Assembly (NCBI GenBank): GCA_025655455.1
Contig: JAHXIV010000042.1
Location: 1 to 60,931 of the forward strand
From: a gamma proteobacterium symbiont of Taylorina sp.
Lineage (GTDB): Bacteria; Pseudomonadota; Gammaproteobacteria; GRL18
Direction of reading: 5' to 3'
DNA: 60,931 nucleotides
Below, in pieces: positions 11,241 to 25,180 of this stretch. The notes beneath the pieces are model-generated. The model made no database searches. It saw only the letters and a list, made by a program, of their open reading frames with translations, and was not told the origin of the DNA. A program made the translations under genes and the position numbers. The first letter of the stretch is position 1; each line of letters starts with the position of its first letter.

Positions 11241-12710
11241 ATGCCCGAATCAATCAGAACGATTACATTACAGGCTCTGCAAGAAGCAAGCTTTACAATG
11301 ACTTTGCCAGTTCAAATCAGTTTTAATCAGCAGGTGGTTCTATGCCATAAATTACTGCGTATAGTGCCAGCCAAACGATTGGTCTTTTCAGGACTATTGC
11401 TTAGTAAAAAAAAGGTTGATAAAGAGGGGCTTGATAAAAAAGTAATTATCAAGCTTTTTATTCACTCAAGCAGGGCAAAAAAACATTGGCAACGAGAATG
11501 TGCCGGTGCAAAATTACTCAGTGACAAGCAAATTCTCTCCCCAGATATTATTACACAGGGATTTTCAGATGAAGGTATTTACTATCTTATTTTTCCTTTT
11601 ATTGAGGGGCAGAATCTAGCACAATTCTGGAAAAAAAATCCTCCAAATAAAAAAGAACAAAAACTTAAGGAATTGATGCCTGTTATAGAAAAACATCATC
11701 GTGCAGGTCTGACACATCAGGATTTACATTATGCAAACTTTTTGCTTTCCAGCAATCACTCTATTTATACTTTAGATGGTGAAGAAGTTAAAGTTTCTAC
11801 TGCACCATTAGCTAAGGAAACACGTCTAAAAAATCTGGCTTTGTTTTTAGCCCAGACCTTTGACTTAAACCAGTCAATCAGCTGCACATTACTGCAGGAG
11901 TATATTTCTTTAACTTCTTTAACACTGGAAAAGCCCCTGTGTAAACAATTCTGGCAATGGATCAAAATTTATCAACAACAACGTATTGTTCAATATTTAA
12001 AAAAGATGCTAAGAGAATGCACAGAGGTTATTTTTAATACAAGCTCTCAGGGATACACCTTATGTCGCAGAGAATCCCATACTCCAGCTATACAACACTT
12101 ACTGGAACAGCCAGAACAATTTTTTCAGGATAAAAATTCAGTTTACTTAAAGCAGGGCAATACCTGCACCGTTAAGTCTGTTCTGCTTGATAATGAACGT
12201 TATGTGATAAAGCGCTACAATCCTAAAGGTCTGCTATATGAGTTAAAACACAAGGGACAAATGTCCAGAGCCAGAAGATCCTGGAACAATGCCCATTTGC
12301 TGAGATTTATTGGCATTTTGACACCTGAACCAGTTGCCCTGATAGAACAACAACCTGAATTAGGAAAACGCTGCAGTTATTTTATCTGTAAATTTCAGGC
12401 AGGGCAGACCAGCTGGGACTTCTTCTCTGATAAAGAACCACCCAACAAAACATTAGTCGCAGATAAACTACTATCAATACTCAAACGTCTCAGCGAATAT
12501 AAAATTACTCATGGTGATCTTAAAGGCAGTAATTTCCTCATTCATCATAATCAGGTCTGGCTGCTGGATCTGGATGCCATGGTTCAACACAAATTTAACT
12601 GGACTTTTAATAAAAAATGGCAACGTGATAAACGCCGTTTTTTAAAAAACTGGGATAAGAAAAAAACCTATACCCCCTGGAAGAAACATTTTAATCATTA
12701 CTTACCTTAA
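11241..12710 (+). CDS. Fused double kinase of the Kdo/WaaP LPS kinase type
   Basis: The ATG at 11241, one base after the waaG stop, gives 489 residues; a longer in-frame reading from 11121 would run inside waaG. Two kinase-fold halves are visible. The first has a candidate ATP lysine in VIIKLF (about K71), a catalytic loop HQDLHYANFLL (159-169) and LDGE as the DFG counterpart. The second has YVIKRY, HGDLKGSNFLI (about 424-434) and LLDLDAM. Both keep the catalytic Asp and the metal-binding Asn, so both may be active. Such enzymes phosphorylate heptose or Kdo in the inner core. Two kinase halves in one chain is unusual among characterised LPS kinases. A similar gene at 19517 is probably a paralogue. 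Confidence 0.8.
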   Translation: MPESIRTITLQALQEASFTMTLPVQISFNQQVVLCHKLLRIVPAKRLVFSGLLLSKKKVDKEGLDKKVIIKLFIHSSRAKKHWQRECAGAKLLSDKQILSPDIITQGFSDEGIYYLIFPFIEGQNLAQFWKKNPPNKKEQKLKELMPVIEKHHRAGLTHQDLHYANFLLSSNHSIYTLDGEEVKVSTAPLAKETRLKNLALFLAQTFDLNQSISCTLLQEYISLTSLTLEKPLCKQFWQWIKIYQQQRIVQYLKKMLRECTEVIFNTSSQGYTLCRRESHTPAIQHLLEQPEQFFQDKNSVYLKQGNTCTVKSVLLDNERYVIKRYNPKGLLYELKHKGQMSRARRSWNNAHLLRFIGILTPEPVALIEQQPELGKRCSYFICKFQAGQTSWDFFSDKEPPNKTLVADKLLSILKRLSEYKITHGDLKGSNFLIHHNQVWLLDLDAMVQHKFNWTFNKKWQRDKRRFLKNWDKKKTYTPWKKHFNHYLP

Positions 12711-12730
12711 TTAGCTGGATTACTTTACCT

Positions 12731-13291
12731 ATGTCTATTACAAAGCATTTATTTTTTCTTGTTGTTATTTCCTCATTAAGTGCTTGTGCTTCACTCAATA
12801 AAGAAGAATGTCAGCAGGCTGACTGGTATGATATTGGTTATCATGACGGAAAATCAGGCTATAAGGTATCACGTCTTTCCGATCACCGTCAGGCATGTGC
12901 TGAACATCATATTTACCCTGATAAAATGCGCTACAAGCAAGGATACAATTTAGGTCTGATTCATTATTGTACACCTGAAAATGCTTTACAGACGGGTCTT
13001 GCTGGAAACACCTATCAAGGTATATGTCCACATGAAGCAGAAAAAAGTTTTTTAAAAAAATACTATCAGGGAAAAGCCATTTATGATCTTAGTAATGAAA
13101 TCGATAAACATCACAGTCGAATTTCTTCGGTAGAATATATTTTAAAACGAGATAAAAAGAAAAATAAACTGACAACAGCAGAAATCAGAGCATATAAAAA
13201 TGAACTCATAGAATTGAAAATTAGAATTGAAGAAAAGCAAAAGCATCTTTACTATATGAAAGGCAAAGCAGATAGTTCTTTATACAATTGA
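12731..13291 (+). CDS. DUF2799 lipoprotein
   Basis: A 186-residue predicted lipoprotein. A hydrophobic N-terminus (LFFLVVISSL) leads to the lipobox LSAC near residue 19. The mature part carries WYDIGYHDGKSGY, the repeat-like RYKQGYNLGLIHYCTP and NTYQGICP, which mark the DUF2799 family of unknown function. A charged, probably coiled-coil tail follows (about residues 120-180). It lies 20 bases after the double kinase and may be the last gene of the waa transcript. The lipobox has no Asp at +2, so outer-membrane sorting is likely. Confidence 0.85.
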   Translation: MSITKHLFFLVVISSLSACASLNKEECQQADWYDIGYHDGKSGYKVSRLSDHRQACAEHHIYPDKMRYKQGYNLGLIHYCTPENALQTGLAGNTYQGICPHEAEKSFLKKYYQGKAIYDLSNEIDKHHSRISSVEYILKRDKKKNKLTTAEIRAYKNELIELKIRIEEKQKHLYYMKGKADSSLYN

Positions 13292-13367
13292 ATAATGTCT
13301 ATAATTTAAAAATGAACAAAATCATCTATGACTGCAACAGTGATATGTAGTGATACAACGGACTTTT

Positions 13368-13427
13368 TGCTAACGACACTAATCAGCCGCACGGCTTTTT
13401 GTGTCGGCTGAATTAGCCTTGTTGGAT
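13368..13427 (-). other. attC-like hairpin at the 3' end of a methyltransferase gene
   Basis: On the minus strand this 60-base stretch starts ATCCAAC (fits RYYYAAC) and ends with GTTAGCA (5 of 7 for GTTRRRY). Between them CTAATCAGCCG (13379-13389) and CGGCTGAATTAG (13405-13416) pair with a single bulge. The methyltransferase stop codon falls in the stem, as often seen in integron cassettes. Size and layout suit a short attC. No matching site was found on the 5' side of the gene, so a plain hairpin cannot be excluded. Confidence 0.35.
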
Positions 13428-14149
13428 GCCTTTCTTCCTCCGAAGAGAGCCAATTCAAAAACTTTAAAAAAGCAATCAACATCGGTGTAGCCGATATGCC
13501 TCAGCCATTGGCACTGGTCTTCTACCCGAGCTAGAATATTTTCCTTCTTGTCCAAGCGTCTATAGTATTTATCAGCAATCGAATCCCGGTTTGCAGTGGT
13601 GTTGGATTTGCTATGAAAGTGATGCAGATGGTCAATGAAAAAGTCATCAAACAGTTCTTCTCCGGCTTGGGTGATAGAGGCCACGTGTTCCAGATTCAGA
13701 AATACGCCGCCGGGCGTGAGAAGATCGAATATCTCGGAGTAAAGCTCACGTTTTCGTTCGTTAGGCTGGTGGTGGATGGCGAATCCAGACACCACTATGT
13801 CAAAGGAGCCAAGTGGGTTTGTGACATCGAGCCATTGAGGGGAAGCGAAATCCCCCTTCACGACAATCGCTTTAGGAAACGTCTCAACTTTCTTGCGAGC
13901 AGCATCTAGCATCGGGTCGGAAAAATCTACAAACAGACCGTTTGAAGACGGGAATCGATTGAGGAGAAAATGTCCAAGAATTCCGTTGCCGCATCCAAGA
14001 TCAAGGATATGCTTTGGTGATGCACACCAGAGATCAACAATCTTACCGATCACAGCAAGTTGCAGATCGGCTCCAGGGATAGTTCCACGTACACCGTTAA
14101 GATAGACTTCGGTAAGTTCTGGGTTTTGCCACTCGCTCTTCTGCTCCAT
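13379..14149 (-). CDS. Class I SAM-dependent methyltransferase
   Basis: A 256-residue methyltransferase. SAM-binding motif I is ILDLGCGNGILGHFL (about residues 42-56); later come VDFSDPMLDAA, VVKGDF, and FDIVVSGFAIHHQP. A strong ribosome-binding site (AAGGAGAG) precedes ATG 14149. The substrate is unknown; the HHQP signature and overall form resemble UbiE-like or trans-aconitate-type enzymes. Base composition by eye is richer in G+C than the neighbouring genes and the 3' end lies in an attC-like hairpin, so it looks acquired. It is flanked by convergent DUF2799 and co-directional DUF1090 genes with no functional link. Confidence 0.85.
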   Translation of the reverse strand: MEQKSEWQNPELTEVYLNGVRGTIPGADLQLAVIGKIVDLWCASPKHILDLGCGNGILGHFLLNRFPSSNGLFVDFSDPMLDAARKKVETFPKAIVVKGDFASPQWLDVTNPLGSFDIVVSGFAIHHQPNERKRELYSEIFDLLTPGGVFLNLEHVASITQAGEELFDDFFIDHLHHFHSKSNTTANRDSIADKYYRRLDKKENILARVEDQCQWLRHIGYTDVDCFFKVFELALFGGRKASNKANSADTKSRAAD

Positions 14150-14204
14150 TATCTCTCCTTACGCCTGCTTTCTCTGTTCATGTGCATATTTTGGTTGGCT
14201 TTCT

Positions 14205-14624
14205 TTAATCTAAGTTGGACAGCTCATCTTCAAGATGTTTTATCTTGTTTTTCTCTTCTTCAATTTTTTCTTGGTATTTACGAACTTTATCTATTTTTCC
14301 ATATTCTTTAGCTTCCTTGAGATCGGATTCATATTCTACAATCTCGTTATTAGCTTCTTCTATTTCTTCGACCAAATCTTCCTTGAGACCTTTATCAGTA
14401 CAATGCTCCTTCGCATTTTCCAATGATCTTGTTAATCCATTGACTTTACCTTTATTCCCTTTTTCCTGAGCAATCTTAAGTTGTCTTTCAATTTCGCAAT
14501 ATTTCTTTTCACAACCTTTTAAATTGTCACAATCAGATGAAGCGAAGACTGAAACAGATATTGAAACAAATAGTACACTAATTGATGCAACGGTTAAAAA
14601 TAATGCTGTTACTTGTTTGGTCAT
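14205..14624 (-). CDS. DUF1090 (YqjC-like) periplasmic protein
   Basis: A 139-residue protein with a signal peptide (hydrophobic residues 7-26, cleavage after VFASS). The mature chain begins CDNLKGCEKKYCEIERQL and is then almost wholly charged helix, with CTDKGLKEDLVEEIEEA, matching the DUF1090 family whose E. coli member is YqjC. A long coiled coil is expected. The function of the family is unknown. It stands 55 bases upstream of the methyltransferase on the same strand; whether they share a transcript is unclear. Confidence 0.8.
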   Translation of the reverse strand: MTKQVTALFLTVASISVLFVSISVSVFASSDCDNLKGCEKKYCEIERQLKIAQEKGNKGKVNGLTRSLENAKEHCTDKGLKEDLVEEIEEANNEIVEYESDLKEAKEYGKIDKVRKYQEKIEEEKNKIKHLEDELSNLD

Positions 14625-14885
14625 AATTTACTTCCTTTTCCTTGTTAAGCTCTCACGTTTGCATCAATTTTAAAGTAGTCGTTCCACTGAACTTTCTGGC
14701 ATGGGATACCTTTATCTTCAGCTAAATCTTTATAAGAATCCCCTGAATTGTTCTATTTTGCCGATTTCTCTATCATTAGGCAAGGGAATTACTCATTAGT
14801 TAAAATGCTGCTTTTTATTAAATAGGGTCACGAAGATAGGTTAAGAGAGGAATAACGTAAAAGTTATTCGGTGTGTGATGTTATG
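14625..14885. other. Intergenic stretch with a possible gene fragment
   Basis: On the minus strand 14645-14752 is open for 36 codons and reads SYKDLAEDKGIPCQ then QWNDYFKIDANVRA before TAA. The composition is protein-like but there is no start codon, and an in-frame TAG precedes it, so it may be a decayed gene end. A 7-bp AT-rich hairpin lies at 14850-14869 just beyond the short-chain dehydrogenase stop, without a T-run. Confidence 0.3.
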
Positions 14886-15617
14886 TTAAATACTCATTCC
14901 TTTGAACTTCCATTCGGGAATATTTCTAATAATTAACATAATCCAGTACCAGATCCATTTTGTATAGAGAATATTTTTATTTTTCTGCTGTGCTCTGTAA
15001 ATATCAATGGCCACTTCTTCAGGCTGAGCAGTCAGTTTTTCAGGCAATTCCATGTCTTTAGTCATACTGGTCGCCACAAATCCGGGATTAACCGTCATTA
15101 CATGGACTTGTGAACTATACAACCGATTTCTCAGGCCGGAAAGATAGGCTGTCAACGCTGCTTTGGCAGAACCGTAAGTATAATTACTCTTACGACCTCT
15201 ATCTCCAGCCACTGAACTGATAGCCACCATAAAACCGCTTTTTCTCTTTTCAAAATCATCGGCGATGATATTAAACAAACTGACCACGCCCGTATAATTG
15301 CTATTAATAATAAGCTGAGCCTCATTAAAATCAGTCTGAGATTTTTCCTGATCGCCAAGATAACCAACAGCACAAATAACACCCAAGGGTTTTTCCTCAA
15401 GTTGCTCATAAAACAAGGAATGACTCTTATAGTTCAGAATATCCAATTCAACTGTTTTAACCTTCCTTTGACTTCTGACTATAATGTCATTGGCAAATTC
15501 TTTTAATTCATCTGCATTTCTGGCAGCCAGATAGAGATCATAGCCATGCTTGGCATATTCTCTGGCAGTTGCTTTGGCTATATCACTGCGGGCACCAATA
15601 ATTAAAACATAACTCAT
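14886..15617 (-). CDS. DprE2-like short-chain dehydrogenase
   Basis: The start MSYVLIIGARSD at 15617 is preferred because GGGGAAAA lies just upstream; a longer reading begins at 15641. This gives 243 residues. The Rossmann motif IIGARSDIAKATA, the ISSVAGDRGR strand, YGSAKAAL with the catalytic Tyr-x3-Lys, and NPGFVATSMT mark an SDR. Its place directly after a DprE1-like oxidase suggests the NADH-dependent reductase that finishes 2'-epimerisation of polyprenyl-phosphoryl ribose to arabinose. A hydrophobic C-terminal stretch (WIWYWIMLII) could anchor it to the membrane, as suits a lipid-linked substrate. The assignment is by family and context. Confidence 0.82.
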   Translation of the reverse strand: MSYVLIIGARSDIAKATAREYAKHGYDLYLAARNADELKEFANDIIVRSQRKVKTVELDILNYKSHSLFYEQLEEKPLGVICAVGYLGDQEKSQTDFNEAQLIINSNYTGVVSLFNIIADDFEKRKSGFMVAISSVAGDRGRKSNYTYGSAKAALTAYLSGLRNRLYSSQVHVMTVNPGFVATSMTKDMELPEKLTAQPEEVAIDIYRAQQKNKNILYTKWIWYWIMLIIRNIPEWKFKGMSI

Positions 15618-15630
15618 GATTTTCCCCGGA

Positions 15631-16929
15631 TTAGATTTCAACTCGCTTGGATTGTAATGACTGAAATTTTATGTCCATTTTATGCTCTTTTCTAAATTTT
15701 CTAAACGTTTCTATCTGTGGATAGCCCTGCTCAAAAACTGCTTTACTCACCCTGACATCTTTGCTCAGATAGATACGTCCCTTATATTGCAGAACGATTT
15801 CATCTAACTTATCCAGCAATTCAAAAAGACCGCTCTCTATTTTAAAATCCAGAGCCAGGCTATAGCCTTCCATAGGAAAAGAAAGATAATTCTCATTGGC
15901 CGGACCATAAAGTTTGAGTATTGCCAGAAAAGAACCTTTGCCGGAAGCAGCAATTGTTTTCAAAACAGCTTGTAATCCTTCATAACTCATTTCTTTGGGT
16001 ATAATAAACTGATATTGTGTAAATCCCTTTCTGCCATAAATTCGATTCCAGTGTCCGATTGCATCCAGTGGATAGAAAAAAGTATCAATGTCTACTTTTT
16101 GTCTGGAGATTCGCTGTTTCACTTTTCCATAATAAAGCCGGTTAAACGCACGTACACTCCAGTTATTTAAGGCAAAACCAGGAAAATCAAACGGAATAGA
16201 GAATTTCTCCGCAGGAGTATAATCCAGTTGCCCGTCATCCCTGAAATCCCCCGTCATTAACAGACACCGGCCAAGACTATCACCCTTTGCAAGACAATCA
16301 ATCCATGCCACAGAATAGGGTGAGCCCCTGTATTCTTCAAAGGCTGCAAAAGTTTCTTTTAAATTCTGAGTTTTAATCGTTGTCTGATTAATATATTGGG
16401 AGTTGATTTTTTTCAGGATGAGTTTTGCATTAAGAATAATACCAGTCAACCCCATCCCCCCACAGGTAGCCTTAAAAAGCTCCGGTATCAATTTTTTAGA
16501 GCAAGTCACAATCTGTCCATCAGTAAGCATAATTTCAAATTCTTCAACGCACTCACTGAAACAACCTTCAATATGATGATTTTTACCATGTACATCTGAG
16601 GCAATAGCACCACCCACTGTAATTAACTTAGTCCCGGGTGTCACCTTAAGAAACCATCCTCTGGGAACAAAGGAGTTTAGTATTTCCGCAAGAAGCACAC
16701 CTGACTGGACATGTAATATGCCTTTTTTCTCATCAAAATTAATAAAATAATCATGCATTTTCATATGAATAATGCTCTCACTTAAAGCACTATCACCATA
16801 GCTTCTACCATTACCATAGGGAATAATTTCACCTTGTGAGTCAATAACAGGCACCAGTTGTTCCTCACTCTCAAAGGGATAAACAATATTATTAACAATA
16901 GGATAACGCCCCCAACTCTTAAGACTCAT
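15631..16929 (-). CDS. DprE1-like FAD-linked polyprenyl-phosphoribose oxidase
   Basis: A 432-residue member of the vanillyl-alcohol-oxidase/PCMH flavoenzyme family. The FAD-binding segment PYGNGRSYGDSAL (37-49) and GGAIASDVHGKNHH (106-119) closely match the mycobacterial DprE1 signatures. YLSKDVR near the C-terminus corresponds to the DprE1 segment holding an active-site lysine. In mycobacteria the enzyme oxidises C2' of decaprenylphosphoryl-ribose, and DprE2 then reduces the keto intermediate. The gene lies between the ubiA-like and dprE2-like genes, with its 3' end close to or overlapping the dprE2-like start, giving a three-gene operon. The polyprenol here is probably undecaprenol; that is inference. 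Confidence 0.88.
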   Translation of the reverse strand: MSLKSWGRYPIVNNIVYPFESEEQLVPVIDSQGEIIPYGNGRSYGDSALSESIIHMKMHDYFINFDEKKGILHVQSGVLLAEILNSFVPRGWFLKVTPGTKLITVGGAIASDVHGKNHHIEGCFSECVEEFEIMLTDGQIVTCSKKLIPELFKATCGGMGLTGIILNAKLILKKINSQYINQTTIKTQNLKETFAAFEEYRGSPYSVAWIDCLAKGDSLGRCLLMTGDFRDDGQLDYTPAEKFSIPFDFPGFALNNWSVRAFNRLYYGKVKQRISRQKVDIDTFFYPLDAIGHWNRIYGRKGFTQYQFIIPKEMSYEGLQAVLKTIAASGKGSFLAILKLYGPANENYLSFPMEGYSLALDFKIESGLFELLDKLDEIVLQYKGRIYLSKDVRVSKAVFEQGYPQIETFRKFRKEHKMDIKFQSLQSKRVEI

Positions 16930-16962
16930 AAAGTGATTCCCTTTTGAAGTGCAAGGCAGGCA

Positions 16963-17832
16963 TTAATAAATAATCCAGGCAAACGAACTGATCCAGCCTA
17001 ATAATATTAATTGCATAAAATGATCACTGAGAACAATTCGGGTCGGTGAACCGCTATTATTTTCAACCAGAGCCATTTGTAAATAACGCAGAACACCAAC
17101 TATCACAAAAATAGCCGTAAGATAGAGATATTCACTTTGTACTCGCTCAATAATTTCCGATGTAGTGGTATAAATAGTATAAGCAACAATAACAACAGAG
17201 GCCATAATCATCATAGCACTATCCAGAAATGGTAAATTATAACCATCAATAACTTTACGCATTTTTTTCCCTGTTTCCAGATAAATGACAACATCATCCC
17301 TGCGCTTGGCCAAAGCCATAAAAAGAGCCAGCAGAAAGGTCATAATAACAATCCACATGGAAAGATGGATACCACTCACGGCAGAACCAACAAAGAGGCG
17401 AATGACAAAGCCAGTGGCGATAATAGTAACATCCAGAATCGCAATATGTTTAAGATAGAGGCTGTAAGCAATATTCATCAACACATAGCATGCAAGAATC
17501 ACTGTTGCCTGAATAGAAAGAAGTGTCATCAGGAAAAATCCCGCGACAAACAACAGCATCATAATTATAATTGCCTGTGGCTTACCAATAAGCCCTGATG
17601 CTAAAGGACGATTCTTTTTTTGGGGATGCTGTCTATCTTCTTCAATGTCATAGTAGTCATTGAAAATATAGATCGCACTGGCTGAGATTGAAAAAGCAAT
17701 AAAAGCAATAAAAGTAGTAAATAACAGCTCAGTTTCAGTAATTTTTAATGCGAAAAAAAGTGGCATGAATATAAAGAGATTTTTTATATATTGATGCGGC
17801 CGCATGAGCTGAATAATGGCAGATAGTTTCAA
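16963..17832 (-). CDS. UbiA-family polyprenyl-phosphate phosphoribosyltransferase-like protein
   Basis: A 289-residue multi-span membrane enzyme. The first Asp-rich motif is NDYYDIEEDRQHP then KKNRPLASG (58-80), which fits the phosphoribosyltransferase branch of the UbiA family (mycobacterial Rv3806c). The second conserved region reads YLKHIAILDVTIIATGFVIR. Rv3806c transfers 5-phosphoribose from PRPP to decaprenyl phosphate, the entry step for arabinofuranose donors. The start is TTG at 17832 with an AGAGA site upstream. It heads the ubiA-dprE1-dprE2 operon and is divergent from waaP across 84 bases. No separate phosphatase gene for the intermediate is seen in the operon. Confidence 0.85.
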   Translation of the reverse strand: MKLSAIIQLMRPHQYIKNLFIFMPLFFALKITETELLFTTFIAFIAFSISASAIYIFNDYYDIEEDRQHPQKKNRPLASGLIGKPQAIIIMMLLFVAGFFLMTLLSIQATVILACYVLMNIAYSLYLKHIAILDVTIIATGFVIRLFVGSAVSGIHLSMWIVIMTFLLALFMALAKRRDDVVIYLETGKKMRKVIDGYNLPFLDSAMMIMASVVIVAYTIYTTTSEIIERVQSEYLYLTAIFVIVGVLRYLQMALVENNSGSPTRIVLSDHFMQLILLGWISSFAWIIY

Positions 17833-17916
17833 TATAATTTCTCTTTTGTTATATTTTTTCTTATATTATACTAAACTGAGACATTGAATAAAATCATAAA
17901 TAATGACAATCAGACC

Positions 17917-18753
17917 ATGCGCTTAGAATTAAGCAAAAATTTTGCTCAACTATGGGGAAAAAAAGATCCTTTTACTGAAGCAGAAAAACTCCAGGGAGAA
18001 GTCTTTCGTGCTTTAGAAGCACGTAGAACACTCCGATTTAGGTTGCATAATCAAAGCTATTTCATAAAAATTCACCGCGGCATCGGCTGGTTTGAAATTA
18101 TTGAAAATCTGTTGCGTTTACGTTTACCTGTTCTTGGTGCAAAAAATGAATATCTGGCTATTAAAAAACTTGAAGAACTGCATATAGATACTATGCACAT
18201 TGCCGGGTATGCTCTTAAAGGTGTCAATCCGGCTCAACAACAATCCTTTATTATTACCGAAGACCTGATTAATACCATCAGTCTGGAAGATTTTTGTGCT
18301 AACTGGAATGAGATACCCCCAGCTTTCAAACTGAAACAAACTCTTATCAGCAAGCTGGCCTCTATTAGTCGTACCCTGCATGAGAATGGCATCAATCACA
18401 GAGATTATTATCTCTGTCACTTCCTTTTAGATAAAAGTTTTTTATATAAAAAGCTGAAGAATAACTCTCAAGACCTGAACAATCAACAATTTAAAGTATC
18501 ACTCATTGATTTACATCGTGCACAAATACGCAATCAGACGCCGGAGCGATGGCGGGTAAAAGACATTGCCAGTCTCTATTTTTCTGCCATGCACATCGGC
18601 ATGACACAACGGGATTTTTTACGCTTTATGAAAATTTATCATCAGACTTCATTACATGATATTTATAAACAACATTATGACTTTTGGGAAAAAGTGAAAC
18701 AACAGGGACACAAACTATGGAAAAGAAAGCAGCGTAAAGGAGATGCTATATAG
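17917..18753 (+). CDS. waaP: LPS core heptose(I) kinase WaaP
   Basis: An inner-core kinase that phosphorylates O4 of heptose I, needed for outer-membrane stability. ATG 17917 (MRLELSKNFAQLW) aligns with the known WaaP N-terminus; an upstream in-frame TTG at 17884 is less likely. It has 278 residues. Signatures include DPFTEAEKLQGEVFRALEAR, FIKIHRGIGWFEIIENLL, SFIITEDL, HRDYYLCHFLL with the catalytic Asp near 163, and LIDLHRAQIR, all close to E. coli WaaP. The stop shares one base with the GTG of the next kinase (TAGTG), implying coupled translation. Confidence 0.94.
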   Translation: MRLELSKNFAQLWGKKDPFTEAEKLQGEVFRALEARRTLRFRLHNQSYFIKIHRGIGWFEIIENLLRLRLPVLGAKNEYLAIKKLEELHIDTMHIAGYALKGVNPAQQQSFIITEDLINTISLEDFCANWNEIPPAFKLKQTLISKLASISRTLHENGINHRDYYLCHFLLDKSFLYKKLKNNSQDLNNQQFKVSLIDLHRAQIRNQTPERWRVKDIASLYFSAMHIGMTQRDFLRFMKIYHQTSLHDIYKQHYDFWEKVKQQGHKLWKRKQRKGDAI

Positions 18754-19508
18754 TGGATCTCTGGTCAAAAAAACTATTTTGGCATATTATGCCTGAATAT
18801 AGAGATACAAGTTTGGGGAAGCTGTTTAAGAATTTTAATAATGCCTATCATTACGAGGGAGAATTTGTTGATGGTAATGTTTATAAGGTCTTAATTGATA
18901 ATAAAATTTATTATCTGAAAAAATATTCAAGGTTCAAAAGAATCCTGCCACGCTATTTTAGTTTTAGCAAGGTAAAAAGAGAGTGGAAAAATCTACTCTG
19001 GTTTCAAAAAATTGGGATTCCTGTTGCTAAAGTGGTGGCCTACGGACAGGAAACTCAAGGTGTAGTGGTTCAAAGAGGACTGCTGATTACAGAAGAATTG
19101 CAAGATTGTTATGATTTAAGCTATATTGTTAATAACAGGCCATCACTTATTAAACAAGCTGACTGGATTGCAGAAGTGAGTCATCAACTGGCTTGCATTG
19201 CCAGAAGATTACATACACATCACTTTGCTCATAATGATTTTAAATGGCGTAATATTATGGTTGATATTAAGGCAAAAAGCCCTAAAATCTATCTCATTGA
19301 TTGTCCTGCAGGCATGAAATGGTATCAACCATTTTTAGGCTATCGAATTATTAAAGATCTGGCCTGTCTGGATAAACTGGCTAAATATCATCTCAGTCAA
19401 AGCCGAAGAATGGCATTCTATAAAGATTATACACAATGTAAAAAACTAACATCCACACACAAAAAACAAATACGACAGATTTTAAAATTTTTTCATAATC
19501 GCGAATAA
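18753..19508 (+). CDS. WaaP/InaA-type LPS kinase
   Basis: A 251-residue kinase-fold protein with a GTG start preceded by AAAGGAGA. It has an ATP-lysine region (IYYLKKYSRF), LLITEEL, the catalytic loop HNDFKWRNIMV (about 159-169) and LIDCPAG in place of DFG. The HNDFKWRNI loop is that of Pseudomonas-type accessory LPS kinases (InaA/WapP-like). It probably phosphorylates a second position of the heptose region. It lies between waaP and another kinase gene, eight bases from the latter. Confidence 0.83.
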   Translation: MDLWSKKLFWHIMPEYRDTSLGKLFKNFNNAYHYEGEFVDGNVYKVLIDNKIYYLKKYSRFKRILPRYFSFSKVKREWKNLLWFQKIGIPVAKVVAYGQETQGVVVQRGLLITEELQDCYDLSYIVNNRPSLIKQADWIAEVSHQLACIARRLHTHHFAHNDFKWRNIMVDIKAKSPKIYLIDCPAGMKWYQPFLGYRIIKDLACLDKLAKYHLSQSRRMAFYKDYTQCKKLTSTHKKQIRQILKFFHNRE

Positions 19509-19516
19509 CAGGTTTT

Positions 19517-21001
19517 ATGATGCTTAATGGTTTGCAACTTTATCTATTGAAACGGGATGTCAGCGTTCCATTTCAAATCAATATTACCACCGATAATTTT
19601 CTTACCGGTATTGGCACTATCCTTGAGTGTGTTGAAGTCTTACGTTTATCTCCACAAAGAAAAATAGTCTGCAAGGCTGAATTTCAGGGACAAGTAGTGG
19701 TGGCTAAGCTGTTTTTACATCCTGACAAGGCAAAAAAAGATCAGGCAACAGAACTTTCAAGTTATGAAGATTTAATCAAAGCTCAAATCAACACACCAAA
19801 AAGACTGAGCTATGGCACACTCAATGAGTCTGGTTTTTATGTTTTATATGAATATATCGCTGATACCAGTGCCCTGGAAAAGCATATCTCTTTAAGGCCG
19901 GATGAACATTCTTTAAAGCGCATTAAAGATCTAATGCCTGTTATTGCACAAATGCATAATAGCAGAATTCAACAAATTGATATCCACCTGAATAATTTTG
20001 TATTAAACAAAACCCTCCAGTCTATTTGTATTGATTGTGGTGATATTGCAGGCCTACCTTCCTCAGCGGAAGATCGCCTGATACAAATACATAAAAATCT
20101 GGCCCATATCTTTTCACAATTACCCATCATTTATGATCAATCTATTAAAGATTTTCTTATGTCGTATCAGCTTGGAACCGTCTTAAGCAAGAAACTTTCT
20201 CATTCTGTTATCTGCCGTGAAATCAATCAGTGGAGACAATTGAGAATACAAACCGTGCTTGATGAAGCCTCTGGAAACGGCAGAAAATTTATCTATAAGA
20301 AAAACCGGCTGGAATTACAAATTTATAATAAAGAATTTTCCAATACACACTGGCAAACATTTTATCAGCAACTGGATAAACTGGTAGAAAATTCTCCCCG
20401 CTTAAAATCAGGCAAAACCACTACGGTTGCTCTGGCTCAATGCGGCAACACAAAAGTTGTCATAAAACATTATCATACTAAGGGTTTACTGCATTGGCTA
20501 AGAAGTTTCCAGCAATCTGATCCTGCCTGGAAAAGCTGGAAAAATGCTCATCAACTGATGGCATTAGGGATTAAAACACCAAAACCAATCGCCATTATAG
20601 TACAACACTCAGAGCAATTAAAAAACCAGGCTTTTTACCTCAGTGAATATGAACCTTCAGAAGATGCACTACTGCAATATAATAAAAAAACCAGCATTTC
20701 AAAAGAGCACCTGGATGATTTTGAACAACTTTTCTATTGTATGATCGCATCAAGAATGAGTCATGGTGAACTAAAGGCTGATAATATTCTATTAACTAAA
20801 GAGGGGCTGTCTCTTGTTGATTTAGACTGCATGAATTTCTATTCTCCTCTGACACAAGGGACAAAGAAAAAATCAACCGGATTTAAAAAAGCATTGCGTA
20901 AAGATTTACAGCAATTTATGAAAAGTTGGCCATTAAATTCAACCATGTACCAGCAATTTAAACAATTATTAAAACAATTACCTGAAAAACCAGCTTGTTA
21001 G
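19517..21001 (+). CDS. Second fused double kinase, with altered catalytic loops
   Basis: A 494-residue paralogue of the protein at 11241: both share a KLFxH/KxFLH ATP-lysine region, a LMPVI segment before the first loop, and a similar second half (KHYHTKGLL here, KRYNPKGLL there). In the first half the loop reads QIDIHLNNFVL, keeping Asp and Asn but losing the usual leading His, followed by DCGD. In the second half the loop is HGELKADNILL, with Glu where the catalytic Asp is expected, then LVDLDCM. The second half may thus be weak or non-catalytic. The first or both halves could act on core sugars. It ends the plus-strand kinase group and is followed at once by a long inverted repeat. Confidence 0.78.
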   Translation: MMLNGLQLYLLKRDVSVPFQINITTDNFLTGIGTILECVEVLRLSPQRKIVCKAEFQGQVVVAKLFLHPDKAKKDQATELSSYEDLIKAQINTPKRLSYGTLNESGFYVLYEYIADTSALEKHISLRPDEHSLKRIKDLMPVIAQMHNSRIQQIDIHLNNFVLNKTLQSICIDCGDIAGLPSSAEDRLIQIHKNLAHIFSQLPIIYDQSIKDFLMSYQLGTVLSKKLSHSVICREINQWRQLRIQTVLDEASGNGRKFIYKKNRLELQIYNKEFSNTHWQTFYQQLDKLVENSPRLKSGKTTTVALAQCGNTKVVIKHYHTKGLLHWLRSFQQSDPAWKSWKNAHQLMALGIKTPKPIAIIVQHSEQLKNQAFYLSEYEPSEDALLQYNKKTSISKEHLDDFEQLFYCMIASRMSHGELKADNILLTKEGLSLVDLDCMNFYSPLTQGTKKKSTGFKKALRKDLQQFMKSWPLNSTMYQQFKQLLKQLPEKPAC

Positions 21002-21083
21002 AGGTACTTGCAAAACTCCAGATTGCTTGATCTTTACCTCCCCCTTCAAAAAAGGGTGAAGCTGAGCAGTTTTGCAAGTACCT
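21002..21083. repeat. Element with 16-bp perfect terminal inverted repeats
   Basis: AGGTACTTGCAAAACT (21002-21017) and AGTTTTGCAAGTACCT (21068-21083) are perfect complements around 50 bases that include a second small pair (CCCCCTTC and GAAGC region). It starts one base after the kinase stop. It may act as a terminator between the kinase group and the carbamoyltransferase, but the sharp ends and C-rich core also look like a small MITE. No second copy was found in the window. Confidence 0.55.
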
Positions 21084-21175
21084 TGTTAATTTTATATTAC
21101 TCAATAGAAATACTTGTTAAAATGTTTCGTTATTTTTAATCAATCAACAAATTCTATACTAAGAAGGACATATCA

Positions 21176-22942
21176 GTGCCGCTGATCACGCTCGGGCTTT
21201 CAGGCTCTCTTAATCATGATCCCTCTGCCGCTCTTTTTATTGATGGCAAACTGGTAGCTGCTGCAGAGGAAGAGCGTTTTATCCGGGATAAACATGCCAA
21301 AGGCAAGATGCCTGTTGAAGCGACAAAGTTTTGTCTTGAATATGCAGGTATTACAGTTGCTGACATTGATATTGTTGCTGTACCCTATGCTGAAATTAAT
21401 CTGTCCACACCTGCTCGCTGGCATTATGCCAAACGCTACTGGTATGCCCCTGATCGAGCTTTGGATGCTTTATTTAACGGCAATCGTCGTTATCGTCGCT
21501 ATATCGGACGTATTAAAGCAATGTGTGAATCACTTGGCATTAACTGGTCCAAAATTCAATTCAAATCAGTTGAACATCATCTGGCTCACGCCAGCAGTGC
21601 CTATCATTTAAGCGGCTTTAAAGAAAAAACAGCGATTATGGGCATTGACGGCAAGGGTGAATATGCCACGACATTTTTCGGCTATGGTGAAAATGGTAAA
21701 ATTCATAAAATTAAAGAATTTTATGATCCAGATTCTCTGGGTGGTGTCTATGGCGCAATGACTGAATACCTGGGTTTTGAAATGCTCGATGGTGAATTCA
21801 AGGTCATGGGAATGGCACCCTATGGTAACCCGGATAAATATGATTTTTCACGCTTAATTTCTCTTGAAGAGAAAGCTGATGGTCTTAGTTTTAAGGTCAA
21901 TACCGATCTGGTCAATGTCATTGGTACACGACGCTATAAAGAAGAGGGCAGGGGATATTATTTTTCACCTGAATTAATTGACTGGCTGGGACCAAAACGT
22001 CAGGGTGATGAAATTGATGATCCCTATATTGACTATGCCGCCTCTATGCAGAAACTTTTTGAAGAAATTTCTCTGCAGTTAATGGATTATTATCTGGGTG
22101 ATATTATTGCAGAAACAGGAAAAATTGCATTCGCCGGTGGTGCCGCCCTCAATGTTAAATTAAATCAGAAAATCATTGCCCGTGAAGAAGTCAAAGAGTT
22201 ATTTGTCCAGCCTGCTGCATCGGATGCAGGTACTGCCATTGGCGCAGCTTCCTATGTTATTGCTGCCCGGGGTATTGAGCTGGAAAAAATGGAGCATGTC
22301 TTCCTGGGACCTGAATTTAGTAATGAGCAATGTATAGCCGCCTGTCAGACTTATCGGATAGAAGGCCAGGCAAATACTGCTCAAAACACAGTTCACTTTA
22401 AAAAAATTGATAATGTCCCCAAACAAATAGCGCAAATTCTGGCTGATGGCAATCCTGTCTCCTGGTTTCAGGGACGTATGGAATTTGGCCCCAGAGCATT
22501 GGGAGGTCGCAGCATTTTAGGTTGTCCCAGTGTGCCGGGTGTTGCCGATCGCATCAATGAACAAATCAAGTTTCGTGAACGCTGGCGTCCGTTTTGTCCC
22601 AGTATGCTGGATACAGTGGCACCTGTTATGTTGAAAACTGATCATCCCGCACCGTTTATGACATTTACCTTTGAAGTAAATGACGGCTGGGCTGAACGGG
22701 TTCCTGAGGTTGTACATGAGGACGGTACCGCCAGAGCACATGCAGTAAAAGAAGCCATTAATCCTCGTTATTATGCTTTATTAAAGGAAGTCGAAACATT
22801 AACAGGCAATGGTGTGGTATTGAATACCTCACTCAATCGTCGTGGTGAACCTGTGGTCTGTACACCGCAAGACGCACTGAATATGTTTTATGGATCTGAT
22901 TTACAATATCTGATTATGCAGGACATTCTGGTGACAAAATAG
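21176..22942 (+). CDS. Carbamoyltransferase, NodU/CmcH family
   Basis: A 588-residue O-carbamoyltransferase that moves the carbamoyl group from carbamoyl phosphate, through carbamoyl-AMP, to a hydroxyl group. It has the N-terminal ASKHA-like part: GLSGSLNHDPSAAL, AAAEEERFIRDKH, the metal-binding HHLAHASSAYH and DGKGEYATT. The C-terminal YrdC-like part has WFQGRMEFGPRALGGRSILG and LNTSLNRRGEPVVCTP. The start is GTG with AAGGA eight bases upstream. In Pseudomonas a carbamoyltransferase in the same place modifies heptose II of the LPS core, so that role is likely here by synteny. Confidence 0.9.
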   Translation: MPLITLGLSGSLNHDPSAALFIDGKLVAAAEEERFIRDKHAKGKMPVEATKFCLEYAGITVADIDIVAVPYAEINLSTPARWHYAKRYWYAPDRALDALFNGNRRYRRYIGRIKAMCESLGINWSKIQFKSVEHHLAHASSAYHLSGFKEKTAIMGIDGKGEYATTFFGYGENGKIHKIKEFYDPDSLGGVYGAMTEYLGFEMLDGEFKVMGMAPYGNPDKYDFSRLISLEEKADGLSFKVNTDLVNVIGTRRYKEEGRGYYFSPELIDWLGPKRQGDEIDDPYIDYAASMQKLFEEISLQLMDYYLGDIIAETGKIAFAGGAALNVKLNQKIIAREEVKELFVQPAASDAGTAIGAASYVIAARGIELEKMEHVFLGPEFSNEQCIAACQTYRIEGQANTAQNTVHFKKIDNVPKQIAQILADGNPVSWFQGRMEFGPRALGGRSILGCPSVPGVADRINEQIKFRERWRPFCPSMLDTVAPVMLKTDHPAPFMTFTFEVNDGWAERVPEVVHEDGTARAHAVKEAINPRYYALLKEVETLTGNGVVLNTSLNRRGEPVVCTPQDALNMFYGSDLQYLIMQDILVTK

Positions 22943-22999
22943 TAATAATAATTTACAGACATTGAGCATAAAGAAAAGTACCTTTTATACAATATCAGA

Positions 23000-24514
23000 T
23001 CAATCTTTTATTTTAAAAACCAGAGCAACATCATTTTTTTTATTTTTAAAGCTCTTTAATAATATTAAATTATCATCATGTTCCAGTGCACTCAACATAA
23101 TCGTATTTTTATGTTTAACCCACAATAAAAGGTATGAAAAATTATTATCTTTAAGGTACTCAATGTCAAATTGATCATAACTTTCATAGAAGCGTTTCTT
23201 CTCTAACTTACATTTTTGCTTAGTATAATAACTAAGCCGTTTCTCATTACAGGCAATTCTATCATCGGGTTTGATATATTGAGTTAACCATTCTCCACTT
23301 TGCTGCATTGGAAATTTTTTTGTTCCAATTTTAATAATGCTATCAAGAAATTGGATTGCAATAAATAGACTGAGAGTAAGCAACCATATTTTCTTTTTCT
23401 GCTGGCTTAAACGGGACATTGCATAATCTAAATACTGCACAAAAACTAGTCCAATTAATAATAATAATAAAACAGTATATCGTGTTGAGACAAACAATCT
23501 GCTGGTAATAAAAATAAGCAATATGAGTAATGCAATTGAGGAAAAATAATAAATAACATGAGACTCTTTCTTAATATTGACCCAGCCTTTATAGCTGCCG
23601 GTTAACCATATTCCAAAATAAACAAGATTGAAGTTATTGATGAGCTTGAATATGAGCATAGTCAATAAACCAGAGCCAATTATTAAGTGACTATAAGCTT
23701 CAGAATATTTGAATGGCAGGACATATTTAACAAAATTATCCGCTGCTAAATTAAAATTGCCAAAAATTTCATTTGCTGAAAAATAAACAATTTGGCTTGG
23801 AAGGTTATTAAAAATAATATATTGTAATTGCCTGGAAAATAGAATAACAATAATGGACATAAGACCAACAGAATAAAAAACAGAATTAAGTGCTAGTATT
23901 TTTTTTATTCTTTCAGCAATAGAATTGTTCTGGATGAATAGAAAATAAAATGGTGCAAGGACTGCAAATACAACCGCCTCAATTCTAAATAATGTCGCTG
24001 TAAATATACAACACTGCCATAACAGAGCATTTACTTTTTTATGATTTTGAAAATATAGAATAAATTGATAAATTGCCATTAAACTAAAGGCCCAAAATCC
24101 ATATTCTCTCCATATATCTCCTTTATAGTCATTTAAGGTCACAAAGGTAAGAATAAAAAGCATTGCAACCCATAGTCGAGCCCCATCAAATGCAATTTTT
24201 GAATAGAGTTTTACAAATATAACACTAATAATTGTTTCAAAAACTATAGTTAGAAAATATGCGGAATTTTCAAGGCTAAAGCCAGTGAGCTGATGAATGA
24301 ATGCAATAACAAAGGAATAAAAAGGCCATCCCCAAACTTTAAAGGCGGCACTAATACCACCATCAAGAAATGCCTTGGCAATATCTATGTATAAAATAGC
24401 ATCACGGGAAATAATATCTCTGGATATGAATAACCATAACGAGATAAGCACGCTTAAGAAAGCTGTAGTTACATATATATGTCTTTCAACCATTTCTATA
24501 ATTGTTTTGAACAT
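23000..24514 (-). CDS. GT-C-type integral membrane glycosyltransferase
   Basis: A 504-residue protein with about ten or more membrane spans. An early loop reads SRDIISRDAILYIDIAKAF, where the acidic residue before a Tyr resembles the catalytic loop of lipid-linked-sugar-dependent GT-C enzymes (ArnT, PMT and mycobacterial arabinosyl- and mannosyltransferases). A second loop has DYKGDIWREYGFW. The C-terminal 100 residues look soluble and periplasmic. It would use a polyprenyl-phosphate sugar in the periplasm. The nearby polyprenyl-pentose operon makes it the best candidate user of that donor. Its ATG directly follows the stop of the kinase-like gene (TAGATG), so the two are coupled. Confidence 0.75.
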   Translation of the reverse strand: MFKTIIEMVERHIYVTTAFLSVLISLWLFISRDIISRDAILYIDIAKAFLDGGISAAFKVWGWPFYSFVIAFIHQLTGFSLENSAYFLTIVFETIISVIFVKLYSKIAFDGARLWVAMLFILTFVTLNDYKGDIWREYGFWAFSLMAIYQFILYFQNHKKVNALLWQCCIFTATLFRIEAVVFAVLAPFYFLFIQNNSIAERIKKILALNSVFYSVGLMSIIVILFSRQLQYIIFNNLPSQIVYFSANEIFGNFNLAADNFVKYVLPFKYSEAYSHLIIGSGLLTMLIFKLINNFNLVYFGIWLTGSYKGWVNIKKESHVIYYFSSIALLILLIFITSRLFVSTRYTVLLLLLIGLVFVQYLDYAMSRLSQQKKKIWLLTLSLFIAIQFLDSIIKIGTKKFPMQQSGEWLTQYIKPDDRIACNEKRLSYYTKQKCKLEKKRFYESYDQFDIEYLKDNNFSYLLLWVKHKNTIMLSALEHDDNLILLKSFKNKKNDVALVFKIKD

Positions 24515-25180
24515 CTAGGATTCCCACCTCTGTTTCAGATTTTGGCAAGTCTGTAAAAAATCTTGTTGGAAATTTTTTTTATGGATACCGCATTGGCTAA
24601 GGTAACCTTGCTCAATTAACTGGTTGTTTTTCACTAGCCGTATATCTTCAGGAAGTCTAAAAATGTGCTTTAAATTCCTGATACGTTTAAAGTGGCTCAA
24701 TGAAGAACAACTAATACTCATATCTGAAATATCTATTAAACCAAATTTTTTCTCAGGGGTGACAATAATATTACCAAAATGGGCTGAACGGAAGAATATG
24801 CCTTTAGCATGTAATTCTGCCAAAAACCCCCCTAATCTAAGTAGAAACTCATCTTCAATTGACTTAGATTGCAGAAACTCTCTGACAGTGAGGCCATCCA
24901 GTTGTTGATAATGGACAGCTGTTCGTTTGATACTATTAATCTTGTACAAATCAATCAATGTGACGGTTGGAATATTGAGCTGCTTTAAGCGTTTGGCATT
25001 TTTAGCAAAACGCCGTGCAGGGGAATAAAGAGTAGCTTGTGAAATAAATCGCTTAACTCGAAATAGCTTGATAATGGAATGATCAACCAGCTCTAATACT
25101 TTTTTTCCATACTCATCATCAGCTAAAACAATAGAGCTTTGTGTGAGTTCATTAAACTCTGTTAGGCTAATCTTACGCAT
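24515..25180 (-). CDS. Divergent kinase-like LPS protein lacking the usual catalytic Asp
   Basis: A 221-residue kinase-fold protein, small for the family. Recognisable parts are IIKLFRVKRFIS (ATP-lysine region), YQQLDGLTVREFL, LGGFLAELHAKGI and the loop FFRSAHFGNIIVTPEKKFGLIDISDM. In that loop RS replaces the expected Asp pair, while the metal-binding Asn and a DFG-like Asp (LIDISD) stay. I recall a similar form in kinase-like proteins near Pseudomonas msbA, sometimes labelled toluene tolerance proteins. It could be an unusual kinase or a pseudokinase. It is first in a two-gene unit with the GT-C enzyme. Confidence 0.7.
   Translation of the reverse strand: MRKISLTEFNELTQSSIVLADDEYGKKVLELVDHSIIKLFRVKRFISQATLYSPARRFAKNAKRLKQLNIPTVTLIDLYKINSIKRTAVHYQQLDGLTVREFLQSKSIEDEFLLRLGGFLAELHAKGIFFRSAHFGNIIVTPEKKFGLIDISDMSISCSSLSHFKRIRNLKHIFRLPEDIRLVKNNQLIEQGYLSQCGIHKKNFQQDFLQTCQNLKQRWES

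What the first reader, a model, noticed from the sequence alone, without database searches (positions are those of the whole stretch)
14886..24514. DprE1/DprE2/UbiA-like pentose-lipid pathway placed in an LPS core locus, with a candidate GT-C user
Seen: a minus-strand operon ubiA-like, dprE1-like, dprE2-like (17832 to 14886) with the NDxxD, GGAIASDVHGKNHH and YxxxK motifs, plus a GT-C-type enzyme at 23000. Established: in mycobacteria these steps make decaprenyl-phosphoryl-arabinofuranose; some Pseudomonas strains decorate pilin with D-arabinofuranose by related enzymes. Inference: here the donor may modify LPS or another surface polymer.
Basis: partly seen in the sequence, partly recalled or inferred. 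Interest (0 to 1): 0.75.

Follow-up and report, generated by a model that had tools for sequence, protein, structure and literature searches.

The report
Arabinofuranose pathway split over two loci
A bacterium apparently related to symbionts of marine animals carries, inserted among its LPS-core genes, three genes closely related to genes of Campylobacterota that are predicted to make lipid-linked arabinose, while the likely phosphatase, flippase and sugar transferase that would complete the pathway lie elsewhere in its genome, beside polysaccharide-export genes.

Summary
In detail: ubiA-, dprE1- and dprE2-like genes form a minus-strand operon (17832-14886) among LPS-core genes, and 23000-24514 encodes a GT-C-fold protein. 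The interpretation needs two corrections. (1) The trio lies in a 5.2 kb insertion between two LPS kinase genes that are at most about 220 nt apart in all 9 congeners read. A strong DprE1 match occurs in 1 of 16 genomes of the genus; the closest relatives found (67-75% identity) are Campylobacterota such as Sulfurovum. (2) The window's GT-C is an unlikely user: three congeners carry it at 74-77% identity without DprE1. Campylobacterota loci usually also hold a GtrA gene and often a HAD phosphatase gene; the window has neither nearby. This genome has both on another contig, beside a wzm gene that very likely continues into wzt and a different GT-C (529 aa, RFWAEE motif) without Pfam or NCBIfam family. 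That GT-C's family was found in 5 of 369 class genomes; in 3 of the 4 others it lies within 2 kb of dprE1. Best reading: a D-arabinofuranose form of the known three-component pentofuranose system (Kelly 2024), split over two loci, likely decorating an ABC-exported glycan rather than LPS core. Chemistry, acceptor and contig junction are inferred.

The parts
16963..17832 (-). ubiA-like gene: predicted polyprenyl-phosphate phosphoribosyltransferase (PPPRS/DPPRS type), 289 aa, first gene of the trio
   Evidence: Pfam UbiA 98 bits; NF008978 219.6 bits over cut-off 207; best PDB sequence 8j8j DPPRS; 74-76% identical to L094-L097 and L102, 54% to L100
15631..16929 (-). dprE1-like gene: predicted polyprenylphosphoryl-ribose 2'-oxidase, 432 aa
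   Evidence: NF053785 379.9 bits, cut-off 500; nine best PDB sequences all DprE1, with the His of HGKNHH and the Lys of the KD-R motif kept; 67-75% identical to 11 Campylobacterota loci, two of them partial
14886..15617 (-). dprE2-like gene (ATG at 15617; the listed TTG start at 15641 overlaps dprE1): predicted 2-keto reductase, 243 aa
12711..17916 (.). insertion of 5206 nt between two LPS kinase genes, absent in 9 of 9 congeners read; holds a DUF2799 lipoprotein gene, a SAM methyltransferase gene, a DUF1090 gene and the trio
   Evidence: synteny, length and waaP start; 9 congeners read of 13 with a waaP match
12731..13291 (+). DUF2799 lipoprotein gene inside the insertion (role unknown)
   Evidence: PF10973 93 bits
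13379..14149 (-). SAM-dependent methyltransferase gene inside the insertion (role unknown)
   Evidence: Methyltransf_25 64 bits
14205..14624 (-). DUF1090 gene inside the insertion (role unknown)
   Evidence: PF06476 108 bits
17917..18753 (+). waaP/rfaP (heptose I kinase), right flank of the insertion; ATG at 17917
   Evidence: NF011703 374 bits over cut-off 170; start from conserved junction
11241..12710 (+). LPS kinase-like gene, left flank of the insertion; ends within about 220 nt of waaP in the 9 congeners read
   Evidence: PF06293 44 bits; synteny
23000..24514 (-).
   Evidence: GT-C fold; present in 3 congeners that lack a DprE1 match

Best explanation
The ubiA-dprE1-dprE2 trio, which sits in a 5.2 kb insertion between LPS-core kinase genes and whose DprE1 groups with Campylobacterota, is predicted to make polyprenyl-phosphoryl-D-arabinofuranose, and a HAD phosphatase, a GtrA protein and a GT-C enzyme encoded elsewhere in the genome, next to wzm and wzt genes, would likely dephosphorylate, flip and transfer it. 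Steps, all inferred from family membership: UbiA joins PRPP to polyprenyl phosphate; the HAD phosphatase removes the 5'-phosphate; DprE1 oxidises and DprE2 reduces C2, turning ribofuranose into arabinofuranose; GtrA moves the lipid-sugar to the periplasmic face; the GT-C (contig C5, complement of 158956-160542) adds D-Araf to a glycan whose export involves Wzm-Wzt. Shown here: the gene content, the empty site in congeners, the grouping of the trio's DprE1 with Campylobacterota, that the trio's UbiA is the only one of three UbiA-family matches of this type, the neighbours of the partner genes, and the physical linkage of this GT-C's family to dprE1 in other bacteria. Each gene group looks incomplete alone and the two together give a full set. 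The GtrA and HAD copies are more distant from Campylobacterota than most trio comparisons are, so the two groups probably did not arrive as one block.
Confidence: 0.55

Rival explanations
1. One reading: the trio makes polyprenyl-phosphoryl-Araf and the GT-C at 23000-24514 in the same window transfers it to LPS core or another LPS part.
For: Real GT-C fold, about 5 kb from the trio, in an LPS locus; a weak profile match of its family to the GT-C that follows dprE2 in L067 (E 5e-5).
Against: The gene is present at 74-77% identity in G002, G003 and G014 with no DprE1 match there; in L078 and L091 it adjoins a kinase gene and an msbA-like gene; it lies outside the insertion; beyond that one weak match its family is in none of the 29 dprE1/ubiA loci held.
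Confidence: 0.12
2. The donor is used for protein glycosylation, as proposed for D-Araf on Pseudomonas type IV pilin; the acceptor is a pilin or pseudopilin.
For: The Pseudomonas precedent is cited in PMC11127046; the C3 partner genes follow type II secretion genes (gene names by recall).
Against: The linked GT-C gene overlaps wzt, and L150 repeats the wzm-wzt association. TfpW itself was not tested.
Confidence: 0.12
3. The trio is a recent passenger that is not, or only partly, functional in this cell: it came without flippase, phosphatase and GT-C and splits a conserved LPS operon.
For: A strong DprE1 match is found in 1 of 16 genomes of the genus; the insertion interrupts an otherwise conserved order; partner genes are missing locally.
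Against: All three frames are intact with catalytic residues kept; a HAD, GtrA and GT-C exist elsewhere, each found at that strength in G000 alone of 16.
Confidence: 0.14
4. Assembly or binning artefact: Campylobacterota DNA mixed into this genome.
For: The genome is in 104 contigs; the trio resembles Campylobacterota.
Against: The trio lies inside a 90 kb contig between genes 56-94% identical to those of congeners; GC of the three genes 0.36-0.38 against 0.374 for the window; contamination listed as 0.19%.
Confidence: 0.03

Closest known systems
Three-component pentofuranose glycosylation systems (Kelly et al. 2024, PMC11127046; Citrobacter youngae O1/O2)
   Same: UbiA-type PPPRS using PRPP, HAD-type phosphoribose phosphatase, flippase, GT-C; DprE1/E2 homologues are named there for Araf-containing glycans
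   Different: Split over two places in the genome; phosphatase is a separate protein, not fused to UbiA; flippase candidate is GtrA, not MATE; whether the GT-C belongs to GT136 was not tested
Mycobacterial DPA pathway (Rv3806c, Rv3807c, DprE1, DprE2, Emb/Aft)
   Different: HAD instead of the Rv3807c-type phosphatase (unrelated to HAD by PMC11127046); Emb/Aft-type proteins were not looked for by family
Pseudomonas aeruginosa PA7 D-Araf pilin glycosylation (as cited in PMC11127046; TfpW recalled)
   Same: A UbiA homologue in a Gram-negative, proposed to lead to undP-Araf
   Different: Acceptor there is pilin; here the linked GT-C gene overlaps wzt
Campylobacterota UbiA-GtrA-DprE1-DprE2 loci (Sulfurovum, Sulfurimonas and others; L094-L104)
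   Same: DprE1 67-75%, DprE2 62-79% and UbiA 54-76% identical
   Different: They usually keep GtrA between ubiA and dprE1, and some carry a HAD and a GT-C; the window has none of these in place

Membership tests
Polyprenyl-phosphate phosphoribosyltransferase (DPPRS/PPPRS) | curated NCBIfam cut-off for decaprenyl-phosphate phosphoribosyltransferase | tested here: met
   NF008978 219.6 vs 207; sister models NF008977 232.9 vs 234 and NF008976 177 vs 474 are not reached
Polyprenyl-phosphate phosphoribosyltransferase (DPPRS/PPPRS) | N-D-x-x-D-x-x-x-D metal/PRPP motif in cytoplasmic loop II (PMC11127046, section 7) | tested here: met
   NDYYDIEED in the translation
Polyprenyl-phosphate phosphoribosyltransferase (DPPRS/PPPRS) | use of PRPP and a polyprenyl phosphate | not testable with these tools
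   needs an assay
DprE1 (decaprenylphosphoryl-ribose 2'-oxidase), equivalog sense | NCBIfam equivalog cut-off | tested here: not met
   379.9 vs 500 bits; I therefore say DprE1-like
DprE1-like oxidase | FAD-linking His (HGKNHH) and active-site Lys (KD-R motif); roles recalled | tested here: met
   alignment to 4aut and motif print
DprE2, equivalog sense | NCBIfam equivalog cut-off | tested here: not met
   168.2 vs 250 bits; SDR model NF005489 361.9 vs 267 is met
DprE2-like SDR | YxxxK catalytic motif and best solved relative DprE2 | tested here: met
   YGSAK; 21gq_C E 8e-25
Three-component pentofuranose system | PPPRS plus phosphoribose phosphatase (HAD) | tested here: met
   UbiA in the window; separate HAD (PF12710 100.6 bits) on C3
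Three-component pentofuranose system | flippase gene; MATE type in the prototype | tested here: inconclusive
   GtrA-family candidate on C3, PF04138 over cut-off; MATE not searched
Three-component pentofuranose system | GT-C transferase of family GT136 | not tested
   GT-C fold by model; no GT136 sequence or model at hand
Three-component pentofuranose system | components in one gene cluster | tested here: not met
   the trio on C17 and its partner genes on C3 and C5 lie apart
Three-component pentofuranose system | extracytoplasmic pentofuranose on a glycan | not testable with these tools
   needs glycan analysis

The most novel reading that the evidence does not exclude
The GT-C family with the conserved N-terminal RFWAEE motif, without a Pfam or NCBIfam model, is an undescribed family of D-arabinofuranosyltransferases acting on ABC-exported polysaccharides; this bacterium completed the pathway by combining two separately acquired, individually incomplete modules, one of them shared with Campylobacterota and parked inside its LPS-core operon.
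Probability: 0.42. Interest if true: 0.68.

Novelty: new variant of a known kind. Interest (0 to 1): 0.5.

Why it matters
It moves the search for the enzyme that uses the sugar from the less likely gene (23000) to a specific, testable one on another contig, and names an unclassified GT-C family linked to dprE1/dprE2 in several bacteria. If right, D-arabinofuranose, best known from mycobacterial walls, decorates surface glycans of an apparent relative of marine animal symbionts, with genes shared between phyla. It would also show a lipid-sugar pathway assembled from two incomplete gene groups at distant places, which locus-by-locus annotation misses.

Tried and rejected
GT-C at 23000 as the user: rejected as first choice. 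PMT_2-type GT-C as the user: the only PMT_2 match in G000 is weak, below cut-off and elsewhere. Local GtrA or HAD: none recognised by eye among the ORFs listed; the genome-wide searches place them on C3 (and a weak HAD match on C56), and the ubiA-dprE1 gap is 33 nt. Phage carriage: no DprE1 match in the phage records, one UbiA match at 49.8%. Relationship of the two GT-C families: hhalign probability 21.7. Promoter and terminator scans gave no usable signal: 20 promoter-like sites against a mean of 18.6 in shuffles; 8 terminator-like against 3.9, sd 1.9. Weak DprE1 matches (E 1e-14 to 1e-3) were set aside as probable generic FAD oxidases, without a family test; of 29 matching genomes of 76, 14 (own included) have E at or below 1e-50. 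Rows left out of trees: DprE1 tree without L070, L073, L074, L103, L104 and L149; the DprE2 and UbiA trees use 17 and 14 rows, chosen by hand. The UbiA tree is poorly resolved and has long branches; in the DprE2 tree the window-Campylobacterota grouping has 90/91. Fold comparison used the PDB only; a fold not listed there is not excluded. Literature: searches are search listings (titles and starts of abstracts); none of the listed entries describes this trio in Sulfurovum, Sulfurimonas or Thiohalomonas, which speaks for those listings only. Only PMC11127046 was opened. My ORF picker takes the longest frames and misreads GC-rich loci such as L149, L067 and L073; one search rechecked the trio genes by tblastn. 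My notebook's '10 of 11 loci' for the empty site was a miscount; the right figure is 9 of 9 read.
Full report
What is there. The minus-strand trio is real and intact: ubiA-like 17832-16963, dprE1-like 16929-15631, dprE2-like 15617-14886 (ATG; the TTG at 15641 is an earlier in-frame start). UbiA passes one NCBIfam phosphoribosyltransferase cut-off (219.6 of 207) and its best solved relative is the decaprenyl-phosphate phosphoribosyltransferase 8j8j. The DprE1-like protein scores best to the DprE1 model and the DprE2-like protein second best to the DprE2 model, both below the equivalog cut-offs (379.9 of 500; 168.2 of 250); their best solved relatives are DprE1 and DprE2. The His of HGKNHH and the Lys of the KD-R motif are kept (roles recalled). 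The surroundings are an LPS-core locus: two GT9 heptosyltransferases, a GT4, WaaP and several WaaP-like kinases. Close homologues of the window's GT-C are named for a Thiohalomonas MAG and for gammaproteobacterial symbionts of Lucinoma and Bathyaustriella, hence my placing of the organism; it was not tested otherwise.

The trio is an insertion. The genome (G000, 4.51 Mb, 104 contigs, listed as 100% complete) was compared with 15 others of its genus. A DprE1 match at E below 1e-50 exists only in G000; two congeners have matches near E 1e-3, which I take for generic FAD oxidases. The genus members run from 64 to 100% complete, so single absences are weak, but the locus itself is informative. 14 of 16 genomes have a waaP match. 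I read the locus in 9 of the 13 others, and in all 9 the kinase gene corresponding to 11241-12710 is followed by waaP with no trio between; the gap is under 40 nt or an overlap in 8 and about 220 nt in one (L085). In the window 5206 nt lie between the kinase stop and the waaP ATG: a DUF2799 lipoprotein gene, a methyltransferase gene, a DUF1090 gene and the trio. Whether this came in one event is unknown.

Origin. One scan of named genomes with the window's DprE1 confirmed 11 loci, all Campylobacterota: Sulfurovum, Sulfurovaceae, Sulfurimonas and Sulfurospirillum MAGs or genomes, 67-75% identical. The best other copy in the relatives sample of 76 is 53%. In a tree of 23 DprE1 rows the window falls in one set with 9 Campylobacterota rows at 100/100, apart from 12 gammaproteobacterial rows (six held rows left out, see Tried and rejected). 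The DprE2 tree agrees at 90/91; the UbiA tree is weakly resolved. The direction, into this genome, is inferred from 1 carrier in 16. Because the scan's patterns came from the query, it finds close relatives only.

What is missing locally. In 9 of the 11 Campylobacterota loci the order is UbiA, a GtrA-type membrane protein, DprE1; GtrA is matched in 10 of 11 and a separate HAD phosphatase in 5 of 11, several of the others being cut by contig ends. Pfam confirms GtrA_DPMS_TM and HAD on one copy of each. In gammaproteobacterial loci the HAD can be fused to UbiA: the four long UbiA proteins tested each match UbiA plus HAD, two of the four HAD matches being over cut-off. The window has 33 nt between ubiA and dprE1 and no GtrA or HAD match.

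The missing parts are elsewhere in the genome. A Sulfurovum HAD query finds one strong match in G000 (C3:260400-261002, E 2e-61, 47%) and a weak one on C56; the other 15 genomes reach E 7e-11 at best, 27-38% identity. GtrA is over its cut-off in G000 alone of 16, at C3:259745-260113; G009 has a match below cut-off. The two genes are divergent neighbours near the end of contig C3, next to a methyltransferase gene and type II secretion genes, followed by a wzm-like gene cut by the contig end (secretion and wzm labels partly by recall, PF01061). A second piece of a wzm gene sits at the end of contig C5. The C3 piece covers residues 33-196 and the C5 piece residues 197-267 of the Wzm of L150, as far as that was fetched, so the contigs very likely adjoin there (inferred; not joined). 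On C5 follow wzt with a Wzt_C domain and, overlapping it by 14 nt, a 529-aa membrane protein, then an acyltransferase-SGNH gene and glycan genes.

Mechanism. The established frame is Kelly et al. 2024 (PMC11127046; abstract, outline, sections 7 and 12 and found passages read; supplements not read): a UbiA-type PPPRS makes polyprenyl-phosphoribofuranose from PRPP, a HAD domain dephosphorylates it, epimerases change the sugar (DprE1/E2 homologues accompany Araf-containing glycans), a flippase moves it and a GT-C transfers it outside the cytoplasm. All these functions have a candidate in G000. Of its 3 UbiA matches one passes the UbiA and one the MenA model, which leaves the trio's as the only PPPRS type. 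The trio lacks phosphatase, flippase and GT-C; the second group lacks a PPPRS. Together they make one set. Identity levels argue against a single transfer: GtrA 54-59% to 8 Campylobacterota copies and HAD 42-48% to 4, UbiA 74-76% to five and 54% to L100.

Verdict. A D-arabinofuranose variant of a known kind of pathway, not a new kind. New here are the arrangement in two places, the interphylum insertion into an LPS-core operon and an unclassified dprE1-linked GT-C family. The acceptor is inferred from gene neighbourhood; an ABC-exported polysaccharide is favoured over LPS core and over pilin. None of the 29 other dprE1/ubiA loci held has a waaP match within the stretch held, so the waaP neighbourhood looks particular to this genome.

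Noticed in passing
window 15631-16929; L094, L095, L096, L100, L065, L066, L150: At the position of the benzothiazinone-reactive Cys of mycobacterial DprE1 (role recalled) all 8 copies printed have Ala (SLALDF or TLALDF).
   Followed up: partly
window 19517-21001: An extra LPS-kinase-like gene (Kdo/WaaP family, 40.5 bits) lies between a WaaP-like kinase and the carbamoyltransferase; it is not at that place in the congeners whose locus reaches it.
   Followed up: partly
window 11241-25180: Unusual density of WaaP/Kdo-kinase-like genes (11241, 17917, 18753, 19517; a fifth kinase-like gene at 24515 without a Pfam match).
   Followed up: no
window 21176-22942 and 46331-48181: Two carbamoyltransferases (Carbam_trans_N/C) in the surface-glycan region; the first is 85-90% identical in the congeners read.
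   Followed up: no
L085:10319-11083 (G013): In one congener two small genes, by look a nucleotidyltransferase and a partner, sit between waaP and the next kinase: the same locus seems open to insertions.
   Followed up: no
MT837543.1 (phage collection): A 6.6 kb record named Bacteriophage sp. from human faeces encodes a UbiA 49.8% identical to the window's over 99% of its length; DprE1 has no match in that collection.
   Followed up: no
G000 contig C1, L129:7160-13579: Three further proteins that look like GT-C enzymes, two of them 73% identical tandem copies.
   Followed up: partly
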